Shown: positions 2,783 to 28,689 of the stretch, in pieces
Position numbering within the stretch: position 1 is the first letter of the stretch
Layout of the letters: the number at the start of each line of letters is the position of its first letter
Source of the DNA: Candidatus Heimdallarchaeota archaeon
Lineage (GTDB): Archaea > Asgardarchaeota > Heimdallarchaeia > Heimdallarchaeales > Kariarchaeaceae
DNA length: 64,000 nucleotides
Assembly (NCBI GenBank): GCA_026702845.1
Contig: JADCLS010000003.1
Location: 1 to 64,000 of the forward strand
Direction of reading: 5' to 3'
Translations under genes and position numbers: made by a program
The notes under the pieces: generated by a model
The model's input: only the letters and a program-made list of their open reading frames with translations
Told to the model about the DNA's origin: nothing
Databases searched by the model: none

Positions 2783-2819
2783 TTAGACAAAAAATATCAA
2801 CAATATGGGGATTTTTTAT

Positions 2820-7500: not shown

Positions 7501-7866
7501 AAGCACAGGAAATAGAAAGGCTTCAGTTTTCCCTGTTGCAGTTGGGACAGAAAGAACATGAGCCTCAATTTCTGTGTTAAATAGAACATCTTCAATAAAA
7601 TTAGCTTGATGATAATAAAGAGATAAATTAGAATCAGAAAACAATATCTGTTTGAATGCTTCTAAAACATAATCATCAAGAGTAAAAGAAGCACCCATTT
7701 CTTCAAGATTTTCATACCATGATTTAGGATTAATGAATATTTCAATCATTTCATTTATTCGAAATATTTTGATAATATCTTTATTTGAGAAATTATCTCC
7801 AAATCCATATTTTTTATAGTTAAAAAAACTCTTCAGAATATTGGCAATAAACTCAATCTCAGTCAT
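4549..7866 (-). CDS. Large DEAH-box helicase with several zinc clusters
   Basis: About 1105 residues from ATG 7866, which has GGAG (7877-7880) about 10 bases upstream; the longer frame to 7905 runs inside the previous gene. Superfamily 2 motifs are clear: Walker A PTATGKTEAF (about residue 110), DEAH in VILDEAHVW (about 268), SAT, and QRVGRIGR (about 785). Zinc-type CxxC pairs occur between the helicase lobes (CPKCNK, CMDCKEY, CPDCYR), after lobe 1 (CTNCQDY, CLKCGS) and at the C-terminus (CQCDSC, CDLCLNP). This layout resembles DrmA, DpdJ and MrfA-type helicases with a DUF1998-like end. It overlaps its neighbours by 8 and 4 bases. Likely role is DNA translocation or processing in the defence system. 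Confidence 0.75.
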   Translation of the reverse strand: MTEIEFIANILKSFFNYKKYGFGDNFSNKDIIKIFRINEMIEIFINPKSWYENLEEMGASFTLDDYVLEAFKQILFSDSNLSLYYHQANFIEDVLFNTEIEAHVLSVPTATGKTEAFLFPVLDKIVKRLKKGQEGTSAIFFYPMKALEADQLNRFVKYVFFLNEKGINIDIGIWDGDTPSQFTKKHVQTNPRGLKCPKCNKSLEINEELKLSCLNHHEINFENIRLTRREIKKTDPSILITNPEALEYRLVSSSGNFRISEQLDYVILDEAHVWKGIGLFPISLLIKRIKLRSKPKFLISSATLGKDKKNLNDFISQMMGNNSFNIIEYYRRKFDPEIEEYIALIKASNYNYLIPASDFEELTGIEFEKFASEFLKNNYGKIKTHISMIINFDNLYCMDCKEYIFEEAEHNSSHDLGNMLYCPDCYRLYFQNSISNKPIFDSCYNHRNITELEIDKYELILYLALYLTGLYSKNKDKILVFSNSRFNAEYLGNKFFEYYAIQYAVVNFTDKIIHGNINLAIFKDKVIAYLIKQFIEIPFKNSRDSTMLSGYYTIFYKIISFSSTHFNNIISGARIFLGNSDSFEEEDEIMNDFFLHLFILYILKYSKYDPNLNGNVYEISDKKILNRFGKDFPFLIQNYDIDIETIEYFTNILIQHNVLNFVDTNKYLLDPFRIKLSKIEGELIHCTNCQDYVNSQFGDYCLKCGSRLINREMIMNGKQFNLEPNRIAIHKGGILAETRNIIEKSLKTNNPKINVVSTTSTLEMGIDIGDLSNMIQYDYPVYFSSYVQRVGRIGRSDIKRNLIINMVPFDSLSGIYTHELFSKGKYFWENISNKELFTQQYGYGQILSELLFALKIKNRKKFKSILSVNSLIDIRLERGEYKEKIKKFISEFVNTIISLIEIETELLKIIFPVDLINNFKKDLMSKTLEMNFIDKLMAIFDILETSFATTQLSEKALEGIVKNSIKDISMLSILNSFGWFCNYRNIGDSAIISRIKVKEDELQIKLFQSKSLVDAVSENYIGSTDYYMGASFETLNAMCGSKNIVNYSLCQCDSCLLFNVPNYAQNTYCDLCLNPTDLIEVNNYIGSIMKTTGLSQATKKDLVYL

Positions 7867-8689
7867 TTGTATTGTACTCCAAAAGCAATTCAACCTTTTC
7901 TTCAACTTCTGTTTGCAATTTGATTATCTTTTTTTCTATCTCTTTCTTTTTTGTTTGAAATCCACCTAAATCATTTCTAATTTGATTAATTGTAGTTTTT
8001 AGAGAATTAACTTTTGCATTAAGATCTTCTAATAATGCTGAAATCTTTGCATCTGAATTAACTTGGTCTAGGTCAATAATACTATTTCTTTTAATTTCAT
8101 ATATCCCCTTTTCAGTATGCTCCAATACAGTTTTTGTTTCACAGATGTACTGATCGAAAATTGGACATTGTCTTTTATTGAATAGCAATACTGCTCTTGA
8201 TAATTCTATTAGAATTTCAATTGTTTGTTCATTTAATTTTAATTCTTCTTCAGATAATGATAGTTTTTCAATTAAGAAATCAATTTTTTCATTAATTGAT
8301 TTTAATTCATTTTGATTTTCTTTAATAGAAATAAGATTCATGTTATATTTTTCTAAATGATTTTTAATATCTGATATAATAGGTATCATAGATATTATTT
8401 CATCATTTAATAAATCCGTAGATTTATTTATCGAATTAGAATATTTTTCTAATAACAGTTTTGACTTATGTCTGATTTCATCACTTGCATTCTCATCTAA
8501 AGAAGTATATAAAGAATAAATGTCAGAAAAAATATTACTATATTCAATTGCTTCATCAATCCTTTGAAGATTACCAAGAAGAGTACTGATAGTATTAATA
8601 TCATCATTAATTGAATCTGCTTTTTTGATTAAATTATCTTCCTTTATCTTTTTAGGGGCTTTTTTTGGCTTTCCTAATTTTTTACTCAT
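7859..8689 (-). CDS. Coiled-coil protein of the defence operon
   Basis: 276 residues, starting with a lysine-rich segment (MSKKLGKPKKAPKKIKED). From about residue 120 to the end it is almost continuous heptad-like helix with Leu/Ile/Lys/Glu, so a coiled coil. No enzyme motif. It overlaps the BrxC-like gene upstream by 4 bases and the helicase gene downstream by 8, so it is made together with them. It may bridge ATPase and helicase; this is inference from position only. Confidence 0.5.
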   Translation of the reverse strand: MSKKLGKPKKAPKKIKEDNLIKKADSINDDINTISTLLGNLQRIDEAIEYSNIFSDIYSLYTSLDENASDEIRHKSKLLLEKYSNSINKSTDLLNDEIISMIPIISDIKNHLEKYNMNLISIKENQNELKSINEKIDFLIEKLSLSEEELKLNEQTIEILIELSRAVLLFNKRQCPIFDQYICETKTVLEHTEKGIYEIKRNSIIDLDQVNSDAKISALLEDLNAKVNSLKTTINQIRNDLGGFQTKKKEIEKKIIKLQTEVEEKVELLLEYNTND

Positions 8690-11604: not shown

Positions 11605-12608
11605 AATTCCTCTTCTCCTACCAACAATAATCTTGTTTCAGCAATTATATCCCTTACAAAATTTCCTTCTGCTTGCAAAAATTCTGGTTTATTAATTTTA
11701 ATTTTATGATGAAGAAGGAATTTATCAGTAAGCGGTAGGCCATCAAAACTTCCAGATTTTTCTGAAGCTTCTCTTAATCTAAGTAAGAATTTTTCTGCAA
11801 AAACTTTTTTAGGCACATAAACTCTTTCACAAAGGTAATCATATATTTCTTCAATCTCTGAAAAATCATTAACAGATAAATTATCCAAAATATAAAATCC
11901 AATAAAGATTTGAAATATTGATCTTGGAAAGATCGGAATTGCAACATTTTTATTTTCAATCTTATCTTTTTGGATAATCCCTAGTTCTTGCCATCGATTC
12001 ATCATATAATCTATTGTATTTTTATTCCATACTTTTGGGTCGAAATGATTTTCAAGTTTTGAAATTTCCAATAAAAACTTTTGATGTGTAGAATTTTTAT
12101 TCCAAAGCAAGGTATATAGTTCCATTGATTTCATTTCTTTGTTATTTCTAGTTACTCTTGATAGTCCCATTTTCTCAAGAATAAATGCAGCAATAATATT
12201 ATTTCTTAGATCTTCATCGATGTCTTTTACTGTTAAATAGTAATAGAGAAATGTAGCATTTCGTTCCTTAGTCAGACCTTGACTGGTCCCCCCATTTATA
12301 AAATATTTGTTTTTTGACTTATTAAATCTCTCTAAAACATCAAATACCCACTGTAATTCAGCAAAATGAGTTGCGGTGTTATCTCTATCAACAGTTCTAT
12401 TTGTTGTATGTACTTTCAATAATCCCTGAGAATAAATAATCTCACCTTTGTTTGATTCTTGAATCTTAGGTTTAATCTGGTACTTTTCAAACATTTTTTC
12501 TGCAATCTCTTTATCAGATGCCCCTTTATCTCCATTAGATTTATTTATTTCAAAAATAACTTTGAATTGATTCAACAATATTGAATAATTAGGCTTGTGG
12601 TAGTACAC
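11601..12608 (-). CDS. Unknown defence-operon protein, helical, possible winged helices
   Basis: The frame is open to 12644, but GGAGG at 12617-12621 points to a GTG start at 12608 (8-base spacing), three bases past the PglZ-type stop. This gives about 335 residues. Segments such as GASDKEIAEKMFEKY look like helix-turn-helix and winged-helix pieces; the C-terminal half is mainly helical. No catalytic motif. Position between the PglZ and BrxC-like genes matches small accessory genes such as BrxB or DpdG in known systems, but I see no sequence signature that identifies it. Confidence 0.5.
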   Translation of the reverse strand: MYYHKPNYSILLNQFKVIFEINKSNGDKGASDKEIAEKMFEKYQIKPKIQESNKGEIIYSQGLLKVHTTNRTVDRDNTATHFAELQWVFDVLERFNKSKNKYFINGGTSQGLTKERNATFLYYYLTVKDIDEDLRNNIIAAFILEKMGLSRVTRNNKEMKSMELYTLLWNKNSTHQKFLLEISKLENHFDPKVWNKNTIDYMMNRWQELGIIQKDKIENKNVAIPIFPRSIFQIFIGFYILDNLSVNDFSEIEEIYDYLCERVYVPKKVFAEKFLLRLREASEKSGSFDGLPLTDKFLLHHKIKINKPEFLQAEGNFVRDIIAETRLLLVGEEEL

Positions 12609-12610
12609 TA

Positions 12611-14419
12611 TCAATACCTCCATATGATTAGTGGAACTAGACATTCATATAATGAAATACCACCATGCCAAGATCTGAAATGATCATTTTTATGACCTAA
12701 TCCTATTCTTTCAATTGGCGTTATCCATTTTTCTGATTCCCTATTCCCAACAATTAATTCATTATGATCTATAAATAAAAACTTATCAGCGTCAAATTGA
12801 ATTTCCTCATTGAAAATATTTCTAGAAATTACATATCTATGATGTGCACCTCCAGATTCCTTTATAAAATAATTTTGATTAAATGAAATAATATTTTCAG
12901 TTTCAATTAAACCATGATCTGCTGTTATAACAACATCAAATATCCCTTCTAAACTATGTGATTCAATTTTCCTAATTAATTTTATACAATCGTCAATCAA
13001 ATTTTCAGCTTGATTAGATAATGATGAACCTTTGGACCTACCTATTCTATCTAGCATAGTATCATAAATTGTATAAAATTTTTTGGTCGATAATGCGAAA
13101 TCTCTAATTTTCTTAAAATCATTGCCAAGAAATGAAGATATATTTGTTATTCCATCGGTTCCTCTTTCTATATCACAATTGTTGAAAAAATGTTTAGTTA
13201 TTGTCGGTAAATTTGAATATGCAAATTCAATTTCAAATTTACTTTCATCAAACAAGTTTTGTTCTAAGAATTGAAAATAGGAATATCCATCAATTATAAT
13301 AAATAATGTTTTTCTATTACTTTTGATGATGGCATTAAGTTTTGATGTAATTAACTGATCTTCACTTATATTTTTGTAGAGGTTAAGTAAATTTGTTGAG
13401 AAACTGTAGTTTTTATAATTTTCAAAAATATACTTTAGTGTAGGACCGTCCAATTTGCCTTGATTAATCATTTCTTTGCATTTTTGAAAATTAATATTGA
13501 AATCATCTTCAAGAATTAAGTTTGATTTAATAAAATTCTCATCATTAATAACTGGAATGAAGTTATGAAGTAAGCAAATATAATTATCAGAAATATTCTG
13601 AAAATTTTCTATCATAAAATCACAGGTTAATAGTTTATTCCATATTTCCTTTCCTAAATAGTGATTAACAATATTGTAATCGGGATACTCTTTGTGAATT
13701 AATTTATATATTTCTTTTTTTAGGTCCTCAGGTCCTATCATACCAACAATATCTGCTATTAGATAATGTATTTTCAAATTTATTATCTTAAAAAGGAAAT
13801 TAAATTTCTGTAAGAAATTACTATCAACTGATTTTAATGCATTTGTATTATCAAAACATGAATTGATAATATTAGCTAATTCTATTTTACCTTGAATTAT
13901 TGAATAATAGTTCTCAAAATAATCCAATAGTGGAAGAGAAATATTAGAACAATATATTTCTAATAATAGGACTTGCTTAAAATGGTGATTAATTAAGTTG
14001 TTCCATCTTTCTTCAATTTGATTAGAAACTCTCCAATTGAAAAACTCTAAATGACTTAAAGCTCTCTCATCTTTGCTATATAATTCAAATAAAGTAAAGT
14101 CATTTAATATAATATATTTGTTCTGTAATTCAAATCCATATAATTTTGATCTAATATAGTTTGATTGATCACTAAAAATATATTCATTAATAGTATCCAA
14201 ATCAAGAATATCAAAATCATCAATACTTAAAGAAAGTTGAAATTCTTCCAAATGTCCTTTTAATTGATAGAAATCTTTTATATACTTATAATTTTTTTGT
14301 CCTAAAATATTGTAATAAGGCTCCAGGCCAAAAGGTATTAAAATGATTGTGGATAATTTATCATTATTTTGAACTTTGGCCTTCCTTGTGACAATGTCTA
14401 AAAATTTCTTTACCTTCAT
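12611..14419 (-). CDS. PglZ-type alkaline-phosphatase-fold protein
   Basis: 602 residues. The C-terminal 250 residues carry the PglZ/alkaline phosphatase pattern: a metal aspartate in LFIIIDGYSYF (about 370), later VVITADHGLIE (about 497) and GGAHHRYVISR. PglZ is the signature protein of BREX and related systems and is a metal-dependent phosphatase/nuclease fold of uncertain substrate. The N-terminal 350 residues are helical with no recognised domain. The ATG at 14419 lacks a clear ribosome site upstream, so the start may lie slightly elsewhere. It is the strongest single marker that the island is a BREX-like defence system. Confidence 0.75.
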   Translation of the reverse strand: MKVKKFLDIVTRKAKVQNNDKLSTIILIPFGLEPYYNILGQKNYKYIKDFYQLKGHLEEFQLSLSIDDFDILDLDTINEYIFSDQSNYIRSKLYGFELQNKYIILNDFTLFELYSKDERALSHLEFFNWRVSNQIEERWNNLINHHFKQVLLLEIYCSNISLPLLDYFENYYSIIQGKIELANIINSCFDNTNALKSVDSNFLQKFNFLFKIINLKIHYLIADIVGMIGPEDLKKEIYKLIHKEYPDYNIVNHYLGKEIWNKLLTCDFMIENFQNISDNYICLLHNFIPVINDENFIKSNLILEDDFNINFQKCKEMINQGKLDGPTLKYIFENYKNYSFSTNLLNLYKNISEDQLITSKLNAIIKSNRKTLFIIIDGYSYFQFLEQNLFDESKFEIEFAYSNLPTITKHFFNNCDIERGTDGITNISSFLGNDFKKIRDFALSTKKFYTIYDTMLDRIGRSKGSSLSNQAENLIDDCIKLIRKIESHSLEGIFDVVITADHGLIETENIISFNQNYFIKESGGAHHRYVISRNIFNEEIQFDADKFLFIDHNELIVGNRESEKWITPIERIGLGHKNDHFRSWHGGISLYECLVPLIIWRY

Positions 14420-14487
14420 TAATAAAAAAATATATTTTCAGCATTAATAGCTTTTCTAACATATATTTAGGTTCTTCACATATATTT

Positions 14488-15987
14488 TCAATAAATATGA
14501 TTTTTTGCATTTATTTCATCAGCTAATAAAATAATATTTTTTACAAAGTCTCTAATTGTTTGATTAACAAAGCAATATTCATCAATTGTATCAAGAATTA
14601 AATCTCTCTCACCAATCAATTCAGTTGCATCAGCCAACATTAATAATTCAAATATTTTTAAACCTAATTTTTGTCTTTTTCTTGGAGTAATATCATCTAT
14701 TTTTAGGCTAATTTGGTTAAAAGTTTCTTGACTAAGCCAAATGTCCTCGGCATCATCAATCATATGATCTAATTTTTTGGACAAATAGTCCATTGTTTTC
14801 TGATAAAAATTGCTGGTAATAACAAAATATGCATATGTATCAATTGTGGTGTCAATGAATTGAAAAAAAGTAGATAAATTATCTATTGCCTTATTAAAAT
14901 AACTAACATTGTTCAAATTAAGTATATCTTCAAATTCTTCAAAAACAAAAACAATAGGACTATCAATTAAATCATGGACTAAAATTGTTAAACTTTTGAT
15001 AAAGTTCCATGCATTTCGATAATTATTATTCCTTACATTAAATGGAGAGTTTGCATAATATTTTGACTTATATGATCTTCCGAGTTTTAAATTTTTAATT
15101 AAATCATGATATAAATTTGATGGATAAGTTGGTTCTAATAAATCAACTTTTTCTTTACATTTGTTATTAAAAATATTTGAAGTCAAAAAGAATATCCTTT
15201 CTAATGCTTTTTGTCTATCGAATCCTTTAGGAAAGTAGGAATTAGGAAAGGATGAATAGAATAGCCAAACAAATAATAGTTTTCTCAAGTACTCACTATG
15301 GATATTTCCCAAGATCTCTTTAATTTTGGATTTTTCAATCCCTCTCTCTGAAATTACTTGTTGACGAAATATCTCAAATAAATAAGGAAATTTGTATAAT
15401 CTACCATGATATTGAAATTGTAAATTATTTAGTATCTCTTGAGCAATTTGATCAAATCTATTGAAACGAATACCAGAATTAGAGCTAAGTTCTATTTTAG
15501 CAATTGAGTATCCTTTAATTAGTAATTCGTTTATCGTATTATTAATAAAATGACTTTTTCCCATTCCTGGAGGTGCATAGACAAAATAAGAATCACCTAT
15601 TAGATTATTATTGATTAAATCATTTAAATGACTATCTAATTTGTCAGACAAGTTAACATTAAGATGATGAATCTTATCTAGAGATGGTGGTACACCGACT
15701 CTCAAATTATTAAGGATCGTTTTAGCTACTTTTCTGTTTAATATACTCTTTTGAGGAATTTCTTCTCCCTTTTTCAAATAATCAAAGAATTTAAGATTCA
15801 CATTAGCAGGCGTTATTATATCTAGATTACTAATTTGTATACTTTCTTTTTTTACAGGAGGGTTCCAATCAAGATATATTCTCTTTTGTGTTTTAATTTC
15901 ATATGTAGCACAGCAATCAGCACAACACCAATAATATTTTTCCCCAATTCTTTTTTCATCACAAATTGAATCGCATTCGCAAAACAT
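14488..15987 (-). CDS. BrxD-like ATPase with N-terminal zinc cluster
   Basis: 499 residues from ATG 15987, with GGGAG seven bases upstream. Residues 1-30 hold eight cysteines (CECDSIC, then CCADCC), a zinc-binding module. Then comes LRVGVPPSLDKIHHL, the BrxD-type lead-in, Walker A YAPPGMGKSHF and Walker B FVFEEFEDIL. It is therefore a second BrxD-class ATPase, paralogous to the one at 2820-4031, with an added zinc domain at the front. It heads the minus-strand operon. Having two such ATPases in one island is unusual. Confidence 0.65.
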   Translation of the reverse strand: MFCECDSICDEKRIGEKYYWCCADCCATYEIKTQKRIYLDWNPPVKKESIQISNLDIITPANVNLKFFDYLKKGEEIPQKSILNRKVAKTILNNLRVGVPPSLDKIHHLNVNLSDKLDSHLNDLINNNLIGDSYFVYAPPGMGKSHFINNTINELLIKGYSIAKIELSSNSGIRFNRFDQIAQEILNNLQFQYHGRLYKFPYLFEIFRQQVISERGIEKSKIKEILGNIHSEYLRKLLFVWLFYSSFPNSYFPKGFDRQKALERIFFLTSNIFNNKCKEKVDLLEPTYPSNLYHDLIKNLKLGRSYKSKYYANSPFNVRNNNYRNAWNFIKSLTILVHDLIDSPIVFVFEEFEDILNLNNVSYFNKAIDNLSTFFQFIDTTIDTYAYFVITSNFYQKTMDYLSKKLDHMIDDAEDIWLSQETFNQISLKIDDITPRKRQKLGLKIFELLMLADATELIGERDLILDTIDEYCFVNQTIRDFVKNIILLADEINAKNHIY

Positions 15988-16236
15988 TTTATTCTCCCAT
16001 ATTAATTTTATTGCTTTCTGTTTTTAATCTTCCTTTCATTTTTTAGAAGACTGCAAAATATTATATTATAAATATAATTTTAGAGGTTTTAATAAAAAAT
16101 TAAAAGGGAATGTAACTAAGATTTGAAAATTATAATATCGAAACTATATAAATAACAAATTTAGATTATAAATAATTCTGAAATTGCAAAATATTATTCA
16201 TAATTAAAAAATTTTCAAATTTAGTAGTTCCTATCA
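15988..16236. other. AT-rich promoter region between operon and DUF6884 gene
   Basis: About 250 bases with no frame. Both flanking genes run on the minus strand, so this should hold the promoter of the large defence operon (first ATG 15987) and the end of the DUF6884 transcript. Many TATA-like AT stretches make exact placement impossible by eye. Confidence 0.35.
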
Positions 16237-16917
16237 TTAAGAATTAATAATATCTAACCAATATTCAAAAGAAATGTTATCTTTTTGATTAATATACGCG
16301 AAATTGTACAGAATAGACCCTTTATTGCTGATACTATTCCCTAGTGGGATTATTAATTTTGAACGATCTATTGCGTTAATCATCTCTGTTGTTATATTTA
16401 CATACTTTTCCGTAAGGCCTTTATCATGGCCAAAAATCACCACTTTATTACCAATATTTTCAATAATATCCAACTCTAATGTCCAAAGGTATTTTATTCC
16501 CATAATTAAAAAAATTTGATCATATTTTTCATTTATTTGTCCAAGTTTTTCATTTATTCCTAGTTGATCAGCTCTAGCTAGTATTTTAGATTTTGAATCT
16601 CCATTAAATGAACAATCGTACGGTGGGAGCATATCATCCTCATGAACAAGGCCAAAACCGGCAGATAAAATATAGTAATCAACATGGTGATTTTTTCTAA
16701 GAAGATCAATCGATTCTGAGATAAGGGTCGCTTGTCTGCCAGTGTATAAATATCGAGCAGGAGTAAGTTTTTCTTCAAATATCTTAATTGCATTAACTCG
16801 TTGTCTTTTAGTTCTAAGATTATTGCACGTAGGTTCTGAAGAGTCAGATACTTTTTTCTTTTTGCCACAAGAGCCAATTATCAAGATTTTCAACAATAGG
16901 GGGAGAATATTTGACAT
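16237..16917 (-). CDS. DUF6884/YaaA-like protein
   Basis: 226 residues, or about 219 if the TTG before KILIIGSCGKKK is used. The N-terminal GSCGKKK, then ARYLYTGRQ and ILSAGFGLVHEDD with PPYD, are characteristic of the DUF6884/YaaA-like group. These proteins frequently occur near nucleobase-modifying enzymes; I recall an association with deazaguanine systems but cannot confirm it here. In this window the gene sits at the head of the island carrying two TGT-like proteins, which suggests a shared role in making or recognising a modified base. No ribosome site is evident; a leaderless transcript is possible. Confidence 0.6.
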   Translation of the reverse strand: MSNILPLLLKILIIGSCGKKKKVSDSSEPTCNNLRTKRQRVNAIKIFEEKLTPARYLYTGRQATLISESIDLLRKNHHVDYYILSAGFGLVHEDDMLPPYDCSFNGDSKSKILARADQLGINEKLGQINEKYDQIFLIMGIKYLWTLELDIIENIGNKVVIFGHDKGLTEKYVNITTEMINAIDRSKLIIPLGNSISNKGSILYNFAYINQKDNISFEYWLDIINS

Positions 16918-17887: not shown

Positions 17888-19027
17888 CTACTCCTTCTTC
17901 TTAACCGAAATATTATCCAATTTTATTTGTTCATTACACCTCTCTATTTTCGCCAAAGCCATTTCTAAATCTCCTTTCTTATCAAATTTCTCTGCTAATT
18001 TAATACATTTTTCAGCAAATTTTATAGCATTTGCAAATTCTCCATCACTAATATGGAGATCTACCATTATTAGATAATTTTTAATTAAATCAATCTCCAT
18101 TCCATTATCTAAAATAAAATCATTAGATTGTTGTAATAACGATAATGCATTATGAGAATCATCTAATATTGAATAAACCTGTGTTAAATTACCGAATGTT
18201 GCAATTTTATCAAGATAATGAGAACGTTTCTCGCGATAATACAAACTCTCCTCGAAATTAATTCGTGCATTCTCATTATCAGAATTGAACAAATAAGAAA
18301 TAGCAAGATAATGATACACCGTGGCTATATCAAAAATCTGCCAACTCAGGTCATTCTCTTTCTCTTCCCTGAATTCCTCCCTTGCATGATCCATTGCTCT
18401 CATCTTCTGGGGCATATTAAGTGAAATGGCGATGAAATTATTTAGAAATTCCTTCAGCTTTCCATCTTTCCTCAGCTTCACACTCTCATTGGCCCGTAAT
18501 TGTATCAATAGCATCTCAAAATATTCATTTGGATCCTGTTGTGCAAAAAATTCTTTCAAATATTGGTACAGCCCCATTCTCTCCTCTAATGGTACAGGAC
18601 TACATTCCTCCACTTTTTTCCAAGGCCAATCAACCACAAATTCATCCCGGTCATCCCAGGTTTGCAATGACCAGCACTTCATGAAATACTCATCTGCAAT
18701 TCCGTAATTCTCATCTAATGGTTCATTTGCTTGAAGAAGATAGAAAACCCCTCTCATCATAAGCAGTTCAATGATATGATCAGATTGTCCTAACAATGTA
18801 CCTAGAGTAATTGCCTGGTCAAAATACAATTCATCAGTAAGTTCATTCCACTTAAATTGGGCTTTTATTACAGAAAAAAGTAATCTAAATTTCAAATCAT
18901 CATCAGTAATTGAATCTACTGATTTCAGATATGATATTAATTCTTCTCTCTTCTCCCTTTCCAGTATATAATTATTTGATTTGATATAATTACATAATTC
19001 AACAGGATCTGAAAATAGAGAACCCAT
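17888..19027 (-). CDS. TPR-like helical repeat protein, intact copy
   Basis: 379 residues. The C-terminal 180 residues contain tetratricopeptide-like helix pairs (YHYLAISYLFNSDNENARINFEES, then GNLTQVYSILDD and further repeats). The N-terminal half is helical, with several conserved tryptophan and acidic motifs shared with the broken copy at 19297-20443. It is presumably a scaffold for protein contacts. It belongs to a duplicated unit in which each TPR-like gene faces a tiny membrane peptide gene, so the two may act together; this is inference from linkage. Confidence 0.6.
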   Translation of the reverse strand: MGSLFSDPVELCNYIKSNNYILEREKREELISYLKSVDSITDDDLKFRLLFSVIKAQFKWNELTDELYFDQAITLGTLLGQSDHIIELLMMRGVFYLLQANEPLDENYGIADEYFMKCWSLQTWDDRDEFVVDWPWKKVEECSPVPLEERMGLYQYLKEFFAQQDPNEYFEMLLIQLRANESVKLRKDGKLKEFLNNFIAISLNMPQKMRAMDHAREEFREEKENDLSWQIFDIATVYHYLAISYLFNSDNENARINFEESLYYREKRSHYLDKIATFGNLTQVYSILDDSHNALSLLQQSNDFILDNGMEIDLIKNYLIMVDLHISDGEFANAIKFAEKCIKLAEKFDKKGDLEMALAKIERCNEQIKLDNISVKKKE

Positions 19028-19151
19028 AAAATCAAATTCTTTCTACAGAATTTAAATATCAACATTCAAGTTCATTTCTTTGCCAATACTTTCACTCAAC
19101 TCTCTCCTTGTGATGTTTCCAAGTTTTTATGTTAAACAATTAATTCATTCC

Positions 19152-19295
19152 ATGATAAAGTATCTAAAACTTTTGAACCGATCTTTTGCAATTAAAGCCT
19201 TTGTGCTTATACTACCACTCCTTTTGGGTATTGTTTTGGGTTCCGCGGGTAACTGTGAGATGCCTGACGGAAGCACTGCTTTTGATTGTGAATAA
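19152..19295 (+). CDS. Tiny membrane peptide, copy 2
   Basis: 47 residues, paralogous to the peptide at 17739-17879: MIKYLKLLNRSF, hydrophobic core FVLILPLLLGIVLGSAG, tail CEMPDGSTAFDCE. The frame is open further upstream to 19080, but the paralogues agree from ATG 19152. It ends one base before the stop of the broken TPR-like gene on the opposite strand. No clear ribosome site, so perhaps leaderless. Confidence 0.6.
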   Translation: MIKYLKLLNRSFAIKAFVLILPLLLGIVLGSAGNCEMPDGSTAFDCE

Positions 19296-19296
19296 T

Positions 19297-20443
19297 TCAT
19301 TCGTCAATTTTCTTATGGGATAAACTTACAACATTCATTTGTGTATTACACCGTTCAATCTTTACTTTGGCCATATTTAATTCATTGATCATATTATATC
19401 GATTTGCCAACTCTATGCATTTTTCAGCCATTATAATTGCATTTTTATAATTTTTATCGATAATATAAAGATCACACATTAGTAAGTAATTATTAATTAA
19501 ATCAACCTCCTCTCCTTTATTCAATATCAATTCATTAAGAAGATTTAATAATAATAATATAGCATTATGAGAATCATCTAATTTTGAATAAATAGCTGAT
19601 AAATTACCATATGTTGAAAATTTATCAAGATAATGAGAATAATTATCTCGATAATATTTACTCTCTTCGAAATTGATCCGTGCATTCTCATAATCTTGAT
19701 TGGACCAATATGCCAATGCTAAATGATGATAGATAGTTGTAATATCAAATAATTGAAATTTCAGATCCTTCTTCTTCTCTTCCCTGAATATCTCTCTAGC
19801 ATGATTCATATTTCGCATGCCTTGGGGCATATTAAGTGATATAGCTATGAAATTATTTAGAAATTCCTTCAATTTTCCTTCTTTTCTCAACTTCACACTC
19901 TCATTTGACCGAAGTTGTATCAACAGCATTTCAAAAAAATCTCTGGGATCATTTTGCTCTAAATACTGCCTCAGATAGTGATACAACCCCAATCATTCCT
20001 CAAGTGGAACTGTACTGCTTTCTTCATGTGTCTTCCAGGGCCATTCAACAATAAACTCATCCCGATTTTCCCACGATTGTAGGGGCCAGCATTTCATGAA
20101 ATACTCATCAGCAATCCCGTAATTCTCATCAAATGGTTCTTCTGCATGGAGTAGATAGGTTACTCCCCGCATCATGTATAATTCAATTAGTTGAGCGTTC
20201 TGACCCAAATCATAGGCAAGCCAGATTGCCTCGTCAAAATATGCTTCATCCGCAAGTTCATTCCATTTGAATTGAGTTTTTAATACGGAAAACAGTAATC
20301 TAAATCTCTGAAACTTATCAGTAATTGATTGTGATTTATCCAGTATGTGACAGAACCTCATTCTTGTTCTCAAAAGCCAGCTCAAAATTATTTGATTCAA
20401 TATATTCACATAGAGCAGTAGAATCAGAGAATGGAGAACCCAT
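19297..20443 (-). pseudogene. Broken TPR-like protein, duplicate of 17888-19027
   Basis: Alignment by eye with the intact copy shows the start ATG at 20443 (MGSPFSDS against MGSLFSDP), a frameshift near 20355 that moves the frame before SQSITDK, and an in-frame TGA between PLEE and LGLY (around 19993) where the intact copy has arginine. The two remaining long open pieces are 20409-19993 and 19992-19297. The pieces still read well, so decay is recent. The TGA could in principle be decoded, but the frameshift argues against a working gene. Confidence 0.8.
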
Positions 20444-20597: not shown

Positions 20598-21311
20598 ATG
20601 AATATTTTAATCACTGGAGCCAGTTCAGGAATTGGGGCCGCACTGGCTAAGCGATTGGTCACCATCTCCACACTGCTTGATGATGGACACAATATCTATC
20701 TCACCGGAAGATCAGAGAAGAAATTACAGGCACTTGCGGATGATCTGAGGGCTCATGGATCACTGGTCTATTTCCAGAAGGGAGAGGTTGGCAATACAGA
20801 GGATGCCAAGAGGATCTGCAACGATGTTCTGGAAAAAATGAAACATGTGGATATTCTGATACTGAATGCAGGTACTGGAGAATTTGGCAATATTGAGGAT
20901 ATGACTGATGAGCAGTATGATAAGATGTTTGATACGAATGTAAAGGGAGTTTTCCTCTACATCAGGGGAATCCTACCCTCCATGCTTGAGCGAAATGCTG
21001 GTCAGATCATCGTCACCTCCTCCAATTTGGGGTTGAATACTGCTGCACGAGGTGCAGTGTACTCCGCATCCAAACATGCCGTGCAGGGGATGATTGGCTC
21101 CTTGAGAAAACAGCTCAAGGGTACGTTTGTCAAGGCTGCAACGATAAATCCAGGGAGTGTGGACACGGAGTGGTTCAAGGATCATGATCAGAAGAAACCC
21201 AAGCCCCATAGAATAGATGTGGATGAGGTGGTGGATGCCTTCATGCTTATCATCAACCAGGGTGCACGATCTAATATCGAGCATATATTGTTGCAACCCA
21301 CCTATGAGTAA
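20598..21311 (+). CDS. Short-chain dehydrogenase/reductase
   Basis: 237 residues. Classic SDR features: N-terminal cofactor site ITGASSGIGAAL, LNAG in the middle (ILNAGTG), catalytic serine in VTSSNLG and the YSASK catalytic pair (Tyr and Lys) near residue 155, then NPGSVDT. An NAD(P)-dependent oxidoreductase of cytosol; the substrate cannot be told from sequence. GC content is clearly higher than in the island to the left. A TATA-like stretch just upstream suggests its own promoter. Confidence 0.9.
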   Translation: MNILITGASSGIGAALAKRLVTISTLLDDGHNIYLTGRSEKKLQALADDLRAHGSLVYFQKGEVGNTEDAKRICNDVLEKMKHVDILILNAGTGEFGNIEDMTDEQYDKMFDTNVKGVFLYIRGILPSMLERNAGQIIVTSSNLGLNTAARGAVYSASKHAVQGMIGSLRKQLKGTFVKAATINPGSVDTEWFKDHDQKKPKPHRIDVDEVVDAFMLIINQGARSNIEHILLQPTYE

Positions 21312-21371
21312 CTATTTAGTAATGTGGAGCTAGGGAATATTTATATTGACGTTTATGGAGAATACCATATC

Positions 21372-21462
21372 AAGTACTATCGTAGTGTGATTACATCAAC
21401 TGTCATTTGAATCAATCATCATACTGCATTTCTTGTCTTGAATTAGAAGGATCACTAACGAT
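21372..21462 (+). repeat. Upstream flank shared by both tRNA-like RNAs, copy 1
   Basis: From AAGTACTA through GATTACATCA to the leader of the first tRNA-like RNA, about 90 bases resemble the flank at 21819-21915 (common blocks AAGTACTA, GATTACATCA, TCAATC, CTTGTCTT). A TATA-like TTTATATT lies upstream at about 21340-21347. It is either a duplicated promoter or a conserved 5' part of the RNA. Confidence 0.5.
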
Positions 21463-21574
21463 TGGAGAATACATCGGCTCATAACCGGGAGGATGTGGGT
21501 TCGATTCCCACCAGCCCAACCATTGCAAACAGATGGGCTGTAGCTCAACAGGTAGAGCACCTATAGTTTCTTCA
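21463..21574 (+). ncRNA. Permuted tRNA-like RNA 1 (Y RNA-like; anticodon CAU)
   Basis: The 3' half comes first: 21475-21522 holds anticodon loop CTCATAA, the CCGGG stem strand, T-arm GTGGG/CCCAC around TTCGATT, acceptor strand CAGCCCA and an encoded ACCA. After 11 bases the 5' half follows at 21534-21561: acceptor TGGGCTG, TA, D-stem GCTC/GAGC, A, CC. Joined at position 28/29 all stems pair perfectly, the acceptor with seven of seven. Leader TGGAGAA (21463-21469) can pair with trailer TTCTTCA (21568-21574), extending the anticodon side. I could not draw a canonical bulge-helix-bulge. Either a permuted tRNA-Met/Ile2 gene or a tRNA-mimicking Y RNA; the Ro60 gene 500 bases downstream favours the second. 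Confidence 0.65.
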
Positions 21575-21818
21575 TCACCTCCTTGTGTCCTTCATTTTAT
21601 TTAACCTAAAATGATAATATAACACAATATAGACCCATACGAATCATATTTTCGATCTCTTTGCCATTGAAATTTTCAGCATTACCATTGATAAGAATCC
21701 ATCCTCTTGTGGATTAATATCCATAAATTTAGTATTGAGGCCTACACTTGGTCATTGAATCGATTAAGGTATGTGTAGTTCAGTTATTTTTATTAGCTAT
21801 GATTATGAGTATGGTGTA

Positions 21819-21915
21819 TTAAGTACTACATCAGAGCGATTACATCAGTTATTTACAGATATTTCGGTCAATCGTTCTGAGACTACCTTGTCTTAATACA
21901 CCTTTGGAATACTAC
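21819..21915 (+). repeat. Upstream flank shared by both tRNA-like RNAs, copy 2
   Basis: This stretch matches the flank at 21372-21462 in block order: AAGTACTA, GATTACATCA, TCAATCG, CTTGTCTTAA, then ACTGAT before the leader helix. The similarity extends into the shared TACATCG after the leader helix. It shows that the two RNA genes arose by duplication or share promoter and leader elements. Confidence 0.5.
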
Positions 21916-22020
21916 TGATAGAGAGTACATCGATTAACCAGAAGGCCATGGGTTCAAATCCCATCACCTGGAACTCCTGGTGTGGCTCAGTAGACTAGAG
22001 CGTCTGGGTCCTCTTCATCA
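21916..22020 (+). ncRNA. Permuted tRNA-like RNA 2, probable Y RNA of the Ro60 gene
   Basis: T-arm half first: CCAGA (21938-21942), AGGCC, T-arm ATGGG/CCCAT around TTCAAAT, acceptor CACCTGG (21965-21971). A four-base loop AACT follows, then the D-arm half: CCTGGTG (21976-21982), TG, GCTC/GAGC, G, TCTGG (22003-22007). Acceptor pairs six of seven (one T-T), anticodon stem five of five. Leader TGATAGAGAG (21916-21925) pairs with trailer CTCTTCATCA (22011-22020), nine of ten, across an asymmetric internal loop. The acceptor is closed, so there is no free CCA end, and the termini sit on the anticodon side. This is the topology described for bacterial YrlA Y RNAs. It ends 48 bases before the Ro60 start. 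Confidence 0.7.
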
Positions 22021-22068
22021 ACTACTCGTTTCCACAAGACAAGTGTACGAGCAATAGGGGTGAGTAAC

Positions 22069-23562
22069 ATGAAATTCAACACCAAAACACCAAGAATCAA
22101 AAATGTAATGACATACGAGGGAGCTGAGGCCTACTCCTATCAGGATCCCAGAAACGAGCTTGTCGCAGCAGTGGCCACCACATTTCTTGAGGATAAATAC
22201 TATGAATCCTCTGCTGAGCGCATGGATCGTGTGAAGAATCTGGTGTATCAAGTACTTGAGAGGGGGCAATTCACCTTTCTCTTCAACCTGTTATACATCA
22301 CCAGACATGAGTGGCATCTCAGATCTATCAGCCATTTGCTTGCAGGGATTCTGGTAGGTGCCACCAAGTACAGGAAAGAATATCCAGATGATGCAGCCGA
22401 GATGCTATCCTCAACCTGGATTCGACCGGATGATATGTCCCACACTGTGGCATACTGGGTGAAACATATCAATGGAGGGCTGAACACCAAGCAGGGAGGA
22501 AAGGAAGGTTTTCCCTACCTGTTGTCAAGGGCCATCAATCATCGATTCAATACCATGAGTATGTTTCAAGCTGCCAAGTATCATCAGCTGGGCACACAGT
22601 TCTCCCTGTACAACCTGCTACGTATCAGTAGACCAACTGCTGTGAATCAGGAGCAGAATGCTGTGTTTCAGGCTATCATCGGACACTACAAACAGCAGAA
22701 AAAAGGTGAAATCAGTGAGGTCACCCTACCCACGGATGAGAACTGGAGAGCATATCTTGACAAGCTCATTGGTCAGGGAGTGGATCACAAGCTGGCATTT
22801 GAAGCAGTTATGGATAAGATGGGCCTCTTCGCCCTGATCAACAACCTCAACACCTTTGATAGACACGGTGTGGAAGATAGAAAAGTGATATCTCGGTTCA
22901 CCAGAGAGGCGGTGATCAGATCAAAACTACTACCATTCAGATTCATGACTGCCATGGAACAGGTCACTTATACGCCATACAGGGGAGTTCTGAAGCAAGC
23001 ACTTGAGGATTCCTTTGTCAACCTCGTCCTTCCTGCCAACAGGAAATACCTGGTGGCCGTGGATACCTCAGGATCTATGCATGGAAGACCAGTGGACATT
23101 GCCTCCACCTTCGGTGCCATCCTTGCCAGAAAGGCTGAGGATGATCCATCCAACACCGTGCATCTGGTGGCATTTGCCACTGATTTACAGAGGGTGGATA
23201 CCTTTGACATGGGTGTGTTTGCACTCAAGGAGAAGATCATTAGAACAGAGGTGGGACATGGTACCAATGGACACCTGGTGTACAGATATGCCAAGAGAGA
23301 AGATACACCGGCATTTGATTATGTCATCGTATTGACTGATATACAGTATCACTACATGTTCAATGAGCAACCTCCACATGATATGATTGTGGTCAATGCC
23401 AACTTGCAGGGTTACAGGAACACCCAGACACCATTCAGCAGGCAGGCAAATGTTGTCGAGGTGGCCAATATCTCTGAGAAGATCTTTGATTACCTGGAGA
23501 TCATCACCGATCCTGAGGGGATGATCAGCTACATAGAGAGCTACAGGCCATCACTACAATAA
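22069..23562 (+). CDS. Ro60/TROVE domain RNA-binding protein
   Basis: About 497 residues from ATG 22069 (GGGGTGA five bases upstream). The N-terminal 310 residues form the TROVE HEAT-repeat ring (FTFLFNLLYITRHEWHLRS, HLLAGILVGATKY). The C-terminal von Willebrand A domain has an intact MIDAS start, VAVDTSGSM (about residue 330), followed by the T and VLTD positions. Ro60 and bacterial Rsr bind misfolded RNAs and Y RNAs and guide RNA quality control with exonucleases. The two tRNA-like RNAs directly upstream on the same strand are the natural candidates for its Y RNA partners. TROVE genes are uncommon in archaea. Confidence 0.92.
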   Translation: MKFNTKTPRIKNVMTYEGAEAYSYQDPRNELVAAVATTFLEDKYYESSAERMDRVKNLVYQVLERGQFTFLFNLLYITRHEWHLRSISHLLAGILVGATKYRKEYPDDAAEMLSSTWIRPDDMSHTVAYWVKHINGGLNTKQGGKEGFPYLLSRAINHRFNTMSMFQAAKYHQLGTQFSLYNLLRISRPTAVNQEQNAVFQAIIGHYKQQKKGEISEVTLPTDENWRAYLDKLIGQGVDHKLAFEAVMDKMGLFALINNLNTFDRHGVEDRKVISRFTREAVIRSKLLPFRFMTAMEQVTYTPYRGVLKQALEDSFVNLVLPANRKYLVAVDTSGSMHGRPVDIASTFGAILARKAEDDPSNTVHLVAFATDLQRVDTFDMGVFALKEKIIRTEVGHGTNGHLVYRYAKREDTPAFDYVIVLTDIQYHYMFNEQPPHDMIVVNANLQGYRNTQTPFSRQANVVEVANISEKIFDYLEIITDPEGMISYIESYRPSLQ

Positions 23563-23609
23563 TCATACCAACCTAACATATAATCTATATTTTTCAACTA
23601 GTATACTAT

Positions 23610-24611
23610 CTATAGACATTCCTCATGGATCTCAGGTTCAAATCCCTCGGGATAGCCAGTAATGGGCTTAATTGCAAATTTACAGGTTTTACCCCCAGTG
23701 ACCACTGATTCAAGTAGTGTTACTTCAACTGGATGATCAAGCACATATTCCCAGAAATTCTTGTAATATCCTCCCGACGCATGACAGATGGCAACTGGTA
23801 TCTGCTTGCCCTGTTTGATGGCCTCTCTAACCCAGGGATTATGACAGAAATAATATTGCTTCTCAATGTCTGATACAGCATGTAAGAACTCTTTGGTCAT
23901 GTAGGGTATCTTGGCCAACTCCAGCCGTTCCCCGTCTCTTACTCCCGATTCAATGTAGGGATTATTATTTACATACTCCAACACCTCATCATCAATAACC
24001 TGGGTGAAGAAAAGTGTGCCCTCATCCCTGTGCTTGCGTAATAGCTTGATGAATTTCTCTCGCTTGAATAGCAGGTAAGCATCAATATTGTCACTATCCA
24101 GGTATTCCTGCCGGGGATTTTTATAACTCTCCACATATTTATCTCGCAATCCCAACTCCATGAACTGGTTGGCACATTCCTCACCAACCTCCTTGATGAA
24201 TTTATGTAGTGCATTGAGCATCAATTCTGATTTTCTTTCAGGATGCAATCCAAGGGGGAACTGTGTCTGGTCAAATACCTTGCCAACCATCTCCAAACCA
24301 AATTTTTCCTCCACCCTCCGAACAAAGTTGGGCATAATCTCATAGCCGTCTATTAGTTCCATAGAAGCCAGGATCATCTCATGGTTGTTGAGATAATATG
24401 CCATCCAGATGATATAGATAAAATTATCAAAGGAATTCTTCTTCTCATCAATGAGTTTGCCAGCAAAATGATGTACTTCATCATAGCTACATTGCTTGAG
24501 ATCCTTTCCAAGATACTCCTCAAAAGCCATTAATAATTGAATTGCCTCATCTATCTTTTCTGTAGGAATGCCCTTTTCCTTGCGATTTTCTCTGAATCCA
24601 TCTAAATCCAT
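23610..24611 (-). CDS. Unknown protein, helical N-terminus
   Basis: 333 residues, not confidently recognised. Residues 1-45 resemble a SAM-like helical bundle (ENRKEKGIPTEKIDEAIQLL). The C-terminal part has CHASGGYYKNFWE and TGGKTCKFAIK, reminiscent of small-molecule-binding domains with a C/H pair such as ATC hydrolase or V4R-type folds, but this is a weak impression. Codon use and GC match its neighbours. It is followed on the same strand by the GNAT gene end at 24689, so not obviously co-transcribed. Confidence 0.45.
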   Translation of the reverse strand: MDLDGFRENRKEKGIPTEKIDEAIQLLMAFEEYLGKDLKQCSYDEVHHFAGKLIDEKKNSFDNFIYIIWMAYYLNNHEMILASMELIDGYEIMPNFVRRVEEKFGLEMVGKVFDQTQFPLGLHPERKSELMLNALHKFIKEVGEECANQFMELGLRDKYVESYKNPRQEYLDSDNIDAYLLFKREKFIKLLRKHRDEGTLFFTQVIDDEVLEYVNNNPYIESGVRDGERLELAKIPYMTKEFLHAVSDIEKQYYFCHNPWVREAIKQGKQIPVAICHASGGYYKNFWEYVLDHPVEVTLLESVVTGGKTCKFAIKPITGYPEGFEPEIHEECL

Positions 24612-27468: not shown

Positions 27469-28689
27469 ATGCGAGTACAGAAGAACCATTTACGGGAGAA
27501 TGTGGAAGGTTTCAATACCTTCAGGCAGCTCACGAGGTTGACAAAGAATCTGTACAATGATGCTCTCTATATTCTGAGGCAGGAGTATTTCAGCAATAAT
27601 CGCGTAATCTCAGAATCTGCCCTGTTTCATCAGGTCAAGATTCTTCCCTCCTATCAATCATTATCATCAGATAATGCACAACTCACTCTGAGAATATTGA
27701 GACGTAATTTTTCATCATTTCTGGCATTATTGAGGAAGAAAAAACAGGGATTATACAAGGAAAAGGTGCATATTCCCCATTACTTGAAGTTCAATGGGCA
27801 TTTTCAGGCAGAGTTCATAACTCGTCAGCTGAAGTTGGAGGGAGATAGGATCAGAATTTCTCTTGGTAGAAGGGGAGCTGTGAGTATGGGAAAACGATAC
27901 ATCTATGTACCCGTACCCAGAAATATCAGAGATGAAAAAATCATCAATATAAGAATTATACCCAGGTTTCAAGGAAGCTATTACGAGATAGAGTATATTT
28001 ATGAGCCAATATTATCAAATCCAATTTTGGATCCATCAAAATTTTTGAGTATTGATCTGGGATTGAATAATTTTGCCACTGCAGTGAGCACAGAGGAGAC
28101 TGCCTTCATTCTTGAGGGACGTGGAATAAAAGCTTACAATCAGCTGTGGAACAAGCAGAAAGCAAAATTGCAATCGATCTATGACAAACAAGGAGTGAAA
28201 TTGGGAAGAAAGATGAGTAGACATCATATCAAACGATACAATGTGATGCGGAATTTCATGGCTCATCAGGTAAATTACATTATCCAACATTGCCTGAAGC
28301 ATGATATTGGAAACATAGTAGTGGGAGATTGGGAGGATATGAAACGTGGGTTGCGAATGAGAAGAAAAGTGACCCAGATGCTCCAGCAGATCCCATACAA
28401 GCTATTCAAGGATAAACTCAGAAGCAAATGCGAGGATTATGGAATAATCTATAAGGAAATTGACGAGAGCTATAGCTCTCAAACCTGCAGTAATTGTGGA
28501 GTGGTAAGAAAAGCCAACAGGATACACCGGGGATTATACCGTTGTAACAGCTGTGGAAGACAGAGAAATGCGGATATTAATGGAGCAATTAATATCATGA
28601 GAAAAGTAGCCCCAAAGATGCATAATCAATGGAGTAGTGGTGACATCATCTCACCGAATCGGGTGAAATTGGTAAATTTCACTGCTTGA
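27469..28689 (+). CDS. tnpB: TnpB RNA-guided nuclease
   Basis: 406 residues, full length for the family. RuvC motif I is LSIDLGLNNFAT, motif II lies in NIVVGDWEDMKRG, then the zinc ribbon CSNCGVVRKANR with CNSCGRQRNAD, where the last aspartate is RuvC motif III (DINGAINI). All catalytic acids are present, so it looks active. TnpB enzymes use an omega RNA from the right end of the element to cut DNA at the donor site. No tnpA accompanies it. A TATA-like AAGCTTAATATG (27437-27448) precedes the ATG. Confidence 0.92.
   Translation: MRVQKNHLRENVEGFNTFRQLTRLTKNLYNDALYILRQEYFSNNRVISESALFHQVKILPSYQSLSSDNAQLTLRILRRNFSSFLALLRKKKQGLYKEKVHIPHYLKFNGHFQAEFITRQLKLEGDRIRISLGRRGAVSMGKRYIYVPVPRNIRDEKIINIRIIPRFQGSYYEIEYIYEPILSNPILDPSKFLSIDLGLNNFATAVSTEETAFILEGRGIKAYNQLWNKQKAKLQSIYDKQGVKLGRKMSRHHIKRYNVMRNFMAHQVNYIIQHCLKHDIGNIVVGDWEDMKRGLRMRRKVTQMLQQIPYKLFKDKLRSKCEDYGIIYKEIDESYSSQTCSNCGVVRKANRIHRGLYRCNSCGRQRNADINGAINIMRKVAPKMHNQWSSGDIISPNRVKLVNFTA
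28651..28682 (+). ncRNA. Probable omega-RNA hairpins at the TnpB 3' end
   Basis: Two overlapping inverted repeats lie at the end of tnpB: TCACC/GGTGA (28651-28666) and GTGAAATT/AATTTCAC around GGTA (28663-28682). Omega RNAs of TnpB elements overlap the tnpB end and stop at the right element end, so this is the expected place. The RNA borders are not determinable by eye; the guide would begin at about 28690-28709. Confidence 0.45.

What the first reader, a model, noticed from the sequence alone, without database searches (positions are those of the whole stretch)
21916..22068. A probable Y RNA with permuted tRNA fold directly upstream of Ro60
The RNA reads T-arm half, four-base loop, D-arm half. 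Acceptor strands pair six of seven, anticodon stem five of five, and leader pairs with trailer nine of ten across a lopsided internal loop. Thus the ends lie at the anticodon side and there is no free CCA end. Known bacterial YrlA Y RNAs mimic tRNA in exactly this way and partner with Ro60. Finding one 48 bases before an archaeal TROVE gene suggests an archaeal Ro60-Y RNA system, which I do not know to be described.
Basis: partly seen in the sequence, partly recalled or inferred. Interest (0 to 1): 0.95.

Follow-up and report, generated by a model that had tools for sequence, protein, structure and literature searches.

The report
Archaeal Ro60 with duplicated Y RNAs
Just upstream of the Ro60 gene of a probable Asgard archaeon lie two duplicated pairs of predicted small RNAs, two of them shaped like a tRNA with its halves swapped, which likely bind Ro60 as the Y RNAs of bacteria and animals do.

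Summary
A covariance model built from 17 Ro60-adjacent RNAs of other organisms, with no window sequence, hits the 64-kb window exactly twice at E <= 10, full length: 21456-21582 (64.6 bits, E 1.7e-12) and 21912-22025 (40.6 bits, E 5.6e-7). In 392 genomes, matches at E <= 1e-5 occur in 6, all among the 14 genomes with a TROVE (Ro60) gene; five of the six were training genomes. Both window RNAs carry, right after an inner helix, UACAUC, one base from UACUUC, which 12 of those 17 RNAs have there.

New here: the locus is a tandem duplication. Each copy holds a short Y-like RNA without tRNA module (21370-21441; 21813-21902), then a tRNA-like one (21446-21593; 21905-22034); then comes Ro60. The copies align above all 1000 shuffles; of 34 paired sites compared, 8 changed on both sides and 1 broke.

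The rival, a permuted tRNA gene, lacks its bulge-helix-bulge splice motif. Expression and Ro60 binding are untested. Literature searches listed no archaeal Y RNA. A new variant of a known kind.

The parts
21340..21347 (+). TATA-like box TTTATATT of cassette A, 30 nt before short RNA A
   Evidence: pattern; the promoter stretch alone is not significantly conserved between the copies (109 of 2000 shuffles reach it)
21370..21441 (+). short Y-like RNA A: helix 1 TCAAG/CTTGA, helix 2 GTAGTGTGAT/ATCATACTGC, then UUACAUC; no tRNA module
   Evidence: scan; helix score 14.0, reached by 17 of 1500 random positions; alignment to copy B 56.5 vs shuffles 27.9 sd 4.6, 0 of 2000
21446..21593 (+). tRNA-like Y RNA A: helix 1 GAAGGA(T)/(G)TCCTTC, inner helix TGGAGAA/TTCTTCA, motif UACAUC (21470-21475)
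   Evidence: model R1 64.6 bits, E 1.7e-12; Rfam YrlA 40.3 bits; helices
21495..21558 (+). tRNA-like module of RNA A: T-arm 21495-21511, acceptor-like strands 21512-21518 and 21534-21540 (7 of 7 pairs), 15-nt loop beginning ACCA, D-arm 21543-21558
   Evidence: descriptor
21789..21796 (+). TATA-like box TTTATTAG of cassette B, 24 nt before short RNA B
   Evidence: pattern
21813..21902 (+). short Y-like RNA B: helix 1 GGTGTATTAAG/CTTAATACACC, helix 2 TCAGAGCGAT/ATCGTTCTGA, then UUACAUC; no tRNA module
   Evidence: top hit of the scan on either strand of the window; helix score 20.5, 0 of 1500 random positions reach 20
21905..22034 (+). tRNA-like Y RNA B (the finding): helix 1 TGGAA/TTCCA (21905-21909 / 22030-22034, by reading), inner helix GAGAG/CTCTT (21921-21925 / 22011-22015), motif UACAUC (21926-21931), anticodon-like stem CCAGA/TCTGG
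   Evidence: model R1 40.6 bits, E 5.6e-7; Rfam YrlA 24.0 bits; sequence; inner helix
21948..22001 (+). tRNA-like module of RNA B: T-arm 21948-21964, acceptor-like strands 21965-21971 and 21976-21982 (6 of 7), loop AACT, D-arm 21985-22001
   Evidence: descriptor
22069..23562 (+). Ro60 (TROVE + vWA), 497 aa; an in-frame GTG lies at 22060

Best explanation
This is a predicted Y RNA: its parts lie in the order of a circularly permuted tRNA, its acceptor-like stem is closed by a loop, and its two ends pair into a stem that likely binds the Ro60 protein encoded just downstream. Shown in sequence: the pairings, the sister RNA, the two short Y-like stems, the tandem duplication and the Ro60 gene. Inferred: each cassette is transcribed from its own TATA box as a short RNA plus a tRNA-like RNA. 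The stem (helix 1, an internal loop with ACUA on the 5' side and CUUGU or CUCGU on the 3' side, helix 2, then UACAUC) docks on the Ro60 ring. The tRNA-like module stays free to hold a tRNA-binding partner or to tether a nuclease, while the short RNAs would only gate the ring. By analogy with Deinococcus the particle would handle defective or structured RNA; as archaea generally lack PNPase (recalled), the exosome is the likeliest nuclease partner.
For: A model from 17 non-window RNAs finds only these two places in 64 kb at E <= 10, full length. Over 392 genomes (stricter filters), E <= 1e-5 occurs in 6, all six among the 14 TROVE-bearing genomes; the best match in the 378 others is 37.8 bits and partial. 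Five of those six were training genomes; G197 was held out. Other held-out Ro60 loci with full-length matches above 40 bits: L016, L064, L074, L059. UACUUC with at least 5 of 6 matches lies 22-30 nt before the T-arm in 17 of 17 training RNAs (12 exact) and, with 5 of 6, at 25 and 22 nt in the two window RNAs; an inner helix of 5-9 bp ends 0-1 nt before it in all 19 (the script allowed 0-2 nt). Copies A and B: 147.5 against shuffles 59.0 sd 7.7, 0 of 1000. 34 paired sites compared: 24 same, 8 double changes, 1 one-sided, 1 broken. Y-like stems (score >= 7) within 1 kb before Ro60 in 18 chosen loci: 39 in 18,270 nt, against 13 in 71,986 nt after the Ro60 start. Ro60 identity.
Against: Rfam YrlA gathering score 69 is reached by neither RNA (40.3, 24.0). 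Folding energy is not better than shuffles. Without mismatches the helix score of RNA B is only 8.5, and 614 of 1500 random positions reach 9; that of RNA A is 13.0 (57 of 1500; a stretch at 10210-10315 ties with it). The D-loop of RNA B lacks GG. The 34 compared sites were chosen by hand: outer helices and anticodon-like stems of the tRNA-like RNAs and most of their inner helices (where RNA B has an A.C mismatch) were left out. The training RNAs were picked by a descriptor that demands T, acceptor and D stems, so their covariation is partly built in; the motif search took the best of 15 offsets. The descriptor missed most Ro60 loci (hit near Ro60 in 15 of 49 non-window loci, plus L065 hidden by the mask), and 8 of 14 TROVE genomes give no R1 match at E <= 1e-5. 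The 18 loci are partly near-copies. No close relative of this locus could be fetched; no expression or binding data.
Confidence: 0.87

Rival explanations
1. Both tRNA-like elements are circularly permuted tRNA genes, cut and joined in the anticodon arm to give working tRNAs; RNA A would give an elongator tRNA-Met(CAU).
For: Joining the halves of RNA A gives a 17-nt anticodon arm with CTCATAA in the loop (e.g. CCTGG CTCATAA CCGGG), and ARAGORN calls many joined forms tRNA-Met(cat). RNA A encodes ACCA after the acceptor-like strand, as the permuted tRNAs of Thermofilum pendens encode CCA (PMC3218864, passages seen).
Against: Of 16 joins tested per RNA, none with a 5-bp stem also forms the bulge-helix-bulge: in RNA A at most 3 of 4 central pairs and no helix on the exon side; in RNA B at most 2 of 4. 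RNA B lacks GG in the D-loop and has an acceptor mismatch. A tRNA role explains neither the UACAUC motif, nor the inner helix, nor the short sister RNAs, nor the place before Ro60. T. pendens joins at 59/60, not in the anticodon arm.
Confidence: 0.06
2. They are tRNA-derived leftovers, such as degenerate permuted tRNAs or attachment-site fragments, that lie before Ro60 by chance.
For: Ro60 genes often lie in tRNA clusters (a TROVE gene in 20 of 29 archaeal clusters, PMC6333295, one passage seen; tRNA arrays), and a tRNA 3'-end-like fragment lies after Ro60 at about 23622-23662 (by reading).
Against: 8 double compensatory changes against 1 broken pair between the copies; the same architecture beside Ro60 in several archaea, viruses and bacteria.
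Confidence: 0.05
3. The elements are parts of the 5' leader of the Ro60 mRNA that regulate Ro60 by its own binding, not free RNAs.
For: RNA B ends 34 nt before the Ro60 ATG, and the TATA pattern found nothing in 22000-22069.
Against: Cassette A ends 475 nt before the ATG and has its own TATA-like box; in the Methanoregulaceae locus a terminator-like hairpin with a T run stands between the RNA and Ro60 (by reading). The reading is compatible with also being a Y RNA.
Confidence: 0.08

Closest known systems
YrlA, bacterial Y RNA (Rfam RF02553)
   Same: Order T-arm, looped acceptor-like stem, D-arm; ends pair; lies beside Ro60; full-length alignment to the Rfam model.
   Different: Scores 40.3 and 24.0 against a gathering score of 69; probable archaeal host; AUACAU aligned with the Rfam consensus AUGCUU; 15-nt acceptor loop with ACCA in RNA A; paired with a short Y-like RNA and duplicated. 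Whether rtcB/rtcA are near was not searched.
Metazoan Y RNAs
   Same: Terminal stem with an internal loop as presumed Ro60 site; CUUG on the 3' side (metazoan motif recalled).
   Different: No tRNA-like module in metazoan Y RNAs (recalled); sequence similarity not tested.
Ro60 / Rsr proteins (Xenopus 1yvp, human 9nen, Deinococcus 2nvo, Thermus phage phiLo 9l5y)
   Different: 16-23% identity in the structural alignments; the closest solved sequences are 9l5y and 9kop (E 6.7e-40), 9l5y being titled Ro60 of Thermus phage phiLo.
Permuted tRNA genes of Thermofilum pendens
   Same: 3' half before 5' half; CCA encoded in RNA A.
   Different: No bulge-helix-bulge; break in the anticodon arm, not at 59/60.

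Membership tests
YrlA (Rfam RF02553) | Score at or above the gathering threshold of 69 bits | tested here: not met
   40.3 and 24.0 bits
YrlA (Rfam RF02553) | Permuted tRNA-like module with closed acceptor stem | tested here: met
Y RNA (broad sense: Ro60-bound small RNA) | Gene beside a Ro60/TROVE gene | tested here: met
Y RNA (broad sense: Ro60-bound small RNA) | Terminal stem with inner helix followed by the motif shared with other Ro60-adjacent RNAs | tested here: met
   UACAUC against UACUUC, 5 of 6, both RNAs; model R1
Y RNA (broad sense: Ro60-bound small RNA) | Expressed and bound by Ro60 | not testable with these tools
   no RNA or binding data
Permuted tRNA gene | Bulge-helix-bulge at the exon junction | tested here: not met
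   16 joins per RNA tested
Permuted tRNA gene | All tRNA core features once joined (RNA B) | tested here: not met
   T.T in the acceptor, no GG in the D-loop
Permuted tRNA gene | Sole source of that tRNA in the genome | not testable with these tools
   no whole genome is held for this window
Ro60 / TROVE protein | TROVE domain over the Pfam cut-off and Ro60 fold over most of the length | tested here: met

The most novel reading that the evidence does not exclude
Asgard archaea run a Ro60 particle loaded from duplicated two-RNA cassettes: each cassette makes one short gating Y RNA and one permuted-tRNA Y RNA, and across archaea the same RNA exists in circularly permuted forms (ends at the Ro60 stem here, ends at the acceptor in L069-L072). 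Y RNAs would thus arise repeatedly from tRNA genes opened at the anticodon, and Ro60-Y RNA particles span all three domains of life.
Probability: 0.4. Interest if true: 0.9.

Novelty: new variant of a known kind. Interest (0 to 1): 0.8.

Why it matters
Ro60-Y RNA particles are described for animals and bacteria (PMC4726728, passages). A well-supported archaeal version, in what looks like an Asgard archaeon, would make the particle a three-domain system. It would also let the origin of Y RNAs from tRNAs be tested on loci that look intermediate: a permuted RNA that still carries a tRNA-Met-like anticodon loop and an encoded CCA (RNA A), its more decayed copy (RNA B), and the opposite permutation in other archaea. 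The duplicated cassette provides compensatory changes inside one genome. The shared UACUUC motif is a concrete candidate element of the Ro60 site for mutagenesis.

Tried and rejected
Permuted tRNA gene: 16 splits of the 17-nt anticodon arm were joined for each RNA and checked for a bulge-helix-bulge; none fits. ARAGORN on joined halves calls tRNA-Met for many joins of RNA A, but the call scanned many arbitrary joins and says little for RNA B.

Single-sequence folding did not separate the RNAs from shuffles. Searching GTDB genome contigs with the window Ro60 alone found no relative; the profile of 13 relatives found 7 loci, one titled archaeal (Methanoregulaceae), none titled Asgard. No Asgard genome could be reached, so the closest Ro60 relatives (P0002-P0013, 35-52% identical) remain without genomic context.

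Tandem tRNA arrays imitate the descriptor (T-arm of one tRNA, D-arm of the next): hits in L001, L009, L011, L016, L024 and others vanish when tRNAs are masked. Of 49 non-window loci, 15 have a hit of score 18 or more within 1 kb of Ro60 on its strand; one more (L065) was hidden by the mask and was put back by hand. The training set A2 left out L023 (copy of L018), L014/L074 (score 17), L064 (opposite-strand and low hits only) and a minus-strand hit in L031.

Nine of ten haloarchaeal plasmid loci (L025-L029, L075-L078) gave no descriptor hit; the halovirus HGTV-1 (L030) and Thermus phage phiLo (L032) gave none either.

Promoter conservation between the cassettes taken alone is not significant (109 of 2000 shuffles). 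The stretch 23500-23750 with the tRNA-like fragment gives no Rfam match at E <= 1.

Literature: searches in the held library listed no paper whose title or abstract start tells of an archaeal Y RNA; several lists were cut (for example 20 of 292). The review and papers on bacterial Y RNAs that I asked for by id are not held.

Full report

The observation. The sister RNA at 21446-21593 is the better one: perfect T-arm, seven of seven acceptor-like pairs, D-loop with GG. Rfam's YrlA model aligns to both from end to end, 40.3 bits (E 7.8e-7) and 24.0 bits (E 0.04), below the gathering score of 69. Folding energies are not remarkable.

Relatives. I wrote a descriptor for T-arm, looped acceptor-like stem and D-arm and ran it on Ro60 loci from GTDB contigs, viral contigs, phages, plasmids and the 14 TROVE-bearing genomes out of 392 searched in the phylum of G001, the Methanoregulaceae MAG. 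With ordinary tRNAs masked it found such an RNA within 1 kb of Ro60, on its strand, in 15 of 49 non-window loci (L065 is a sixteenth, hidden by the mask). These include the Methanoregulaceae MAG (L073), the Haloarcula plasmid L024, genomes G112, G117 and G154, viral contigs L012, L015, L021 and L022, Arthrobacter phage Atuin (two RNAs) and a Deinococcus plasmid; 9 of 10 haloarchaeal plasmid loci gave none. From these I took 17 RNAs. In all 17 an inner helix is followed by UACUUC (12) or a one-base variant (5), 22-30 nt before the T-arm. Both window RNAs have UACAUC there, 25 and 22 nt before the T-arm, directly after inner helices TGGAGAA/TTCTTCA and GAGAG/CTCTT. Caveat: the script took the best of 15 offsets and placed the helix within 2 nt of the motif by design.

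Independent test. Model R1 was built from those 17 RNAs without window sequence. In the window it gives two matches at E <= 10 on either strand: 21456-21582, 64.6 bits, E 1.7e-12, and 21912-22025, 40.6 bits, E 5.6e-7, both over model positions 1-118. Among 49 sources it also finds Ro60 loci outside the training set, L016, L064, L074 and L059, with full-length matches of 68.9, 49.2, 43.8 and 43.5 bits. Below about 38 bits the list is mixed with ordinary tRNA arrays. Over 392 genomes (with stricter filters), 15 have a match at E <= 0.001, of which 7 are TROVE-positive and 8 are not. At E <= 1e-5 there are 6, all TROVE-positive (6 of 14 against 0 of 378). Five of the six were training genomes; G197 was not. 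The best score in a TROVE-negative genome is 37.8 bits and partial. Both window RNAs exceed that. The pair counts on A2 show strong covariation, but the set was chosen for pairing, so I lean on R1's performance outside it.

The locus is a duplication. A scan for helix 1, internal loop, helix 2 and NUACAUC ranks 21813-21902 and 21370-21441 first and second in the whole window, with 21446-21593 third, tied with a stretch at 10210-10315. The first two have no tRNA module. NUACAUC occurs 25 times on the + strand of 64 kb and TACATC five times in 21300-22100; four of the five follow a helix 2, the fifth (21827) lies in the internal loop of short RNA B. Stretch 21320-21610 aligns to 21770-22068 with score 147.5 against 59.0 (sd 7.7) for shuffles, 0 of 1000. 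The short-RNA part alone (56.5 against 27.9) and the tRNA-like part alone (82.0 against 30.1) are reached by 0 of 2000 shuffles; the promoter part alone by 109 of 2000. Of 34 homologous paired sites in six hand-chosen helix parts, 24 are the same, 8 changed on both sides, 1 on one side, 1 broke. Left out of that count: the outer helices and anticodon-like stems of the tRNA-like RNAs and most of their inner helices, where RNA B has an A.C mismatch. By reading, all four stems share ACUA in the 5' internal loop, and the 3' loop contains CUUGU (three) or CUCGU (RNA B). TATA-like boxes lie 30 and 24 nt before the two short RNAs.

Rivals. A permuted tRNA gene needs a bulge-helix-bulge at the joint; 16 joins per RNA gave none. 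RNA A can be read as a permuted elongator tRNA-Met with encoded CCA, which I take as ancestry, since other Y RNAs also carry tRNA-like 3' halves (by reading); it stays the main rival for RNA A. The Thermofilum permuted tRNAs join at 59/60 with a bulge-helix-bulge (PMC3218864, passages).

How it would work (inferred). The stem binds the Ro60 ring; the tRNA-like module faces away and recruits a tRNA-binding factor or tethers a nuclease; the short RNAs gate the ring. In Deinococcus, Rsr is tethered by Y RNA to PNPase (PMC7790460, passages). The archaeal nuclease partner is a guess (exosome).

Other archaea. In 18 chosen loci, window included, Y-like stems within 1 kb before Ro60 number 39 in 18,270 nt, against 13 in 71,986 nt after the Ro60 start; several of these loci are near-copies of each other and some single stems will be chance. 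Haloarchaeal loci such as L060, L064 and L065 hold four or five units, many without tRNA module. Four genomes carry the opposite permutation: an ordinary tRNA order CCCCCG...CGGGGG with the stem and GUUACUUCG inserted in the anticodon arm.

Known or new. YrlA-type Y RNAs are known in bacteria (PMC7790460, passages). A 2019 paper reports a TROVE gene in 20 of 29 archaeal tRNA clusters and has no occurrence of the term Y RNA (PMC6333295, one passage and term counts). Borg papers mention a TROVE protein (PMC11208441, PMC9605863, passages). In the held library, searches listed no paper on an archaeal Y RNA; lists were capped and the library lacks most subscription journals. Because the Rfam cut-off is not met and the cassette differs, I call it a new variant of a known kind.

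Noticed in passing
L069 2216-2338 (-), L070 2648-2767 (+), L071 3897-4016 (-), L072 4184-4307 (-): Before Ro60 in four genomes (G018, G136, G126, G038): a tRNA-like RNA in ordinary order with open acceptor ends and a Ro60-type stem plus GUUACUUCG inserted in the anticodon arm, i.e. the window RNA circularly permuted.
   Followed up: partly
L060, L064, L065 upstream of Ro60: Arrays of four to five Y-like stems (about GGUCGUCGAGnnGGAGCGUUCCUUCG ... CGCUCCnnCGAUUUUCCGACC), many without tRNA module.
   Followed up: partly
window 21476-21540: RNA A encodes ACCA right after its acceptor-like strand and keeps a tRNA-Met-like CTCATAA; looks like an intermediate between a permuted tRNA and a Y RNA.
   Followed up: partly
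window 23622-23662: tRNA 3'-end-like stretch (GGTTCAAATCC...GGGATAGCCA) that overlaps the C-terminus of the minus-strand ORF 23610-24611; no Rfam match in 23500-23750.
   Followed up: partly
window 1319-16917: Defence-like cluster: of 9 ORFs scanned, 5 match PADLOC models (DpdA/TGT-like, BrxD-like, a large helicase, PglZ-like, DpdC-like), reminiscent of BREX and Dpd systems.
   Followed up: partly
window 27469-28689: TnpB-like (OrfB_IS605, Cas12f1-like TNB) protein.
   Followed up: no
window 17888-20409: Adjacent related minus-strand ORFs (17888-19027, 19297-19992, 19993-20409); the second and third look like two pieces of one copy of the first (by reading).
   Followed up: no
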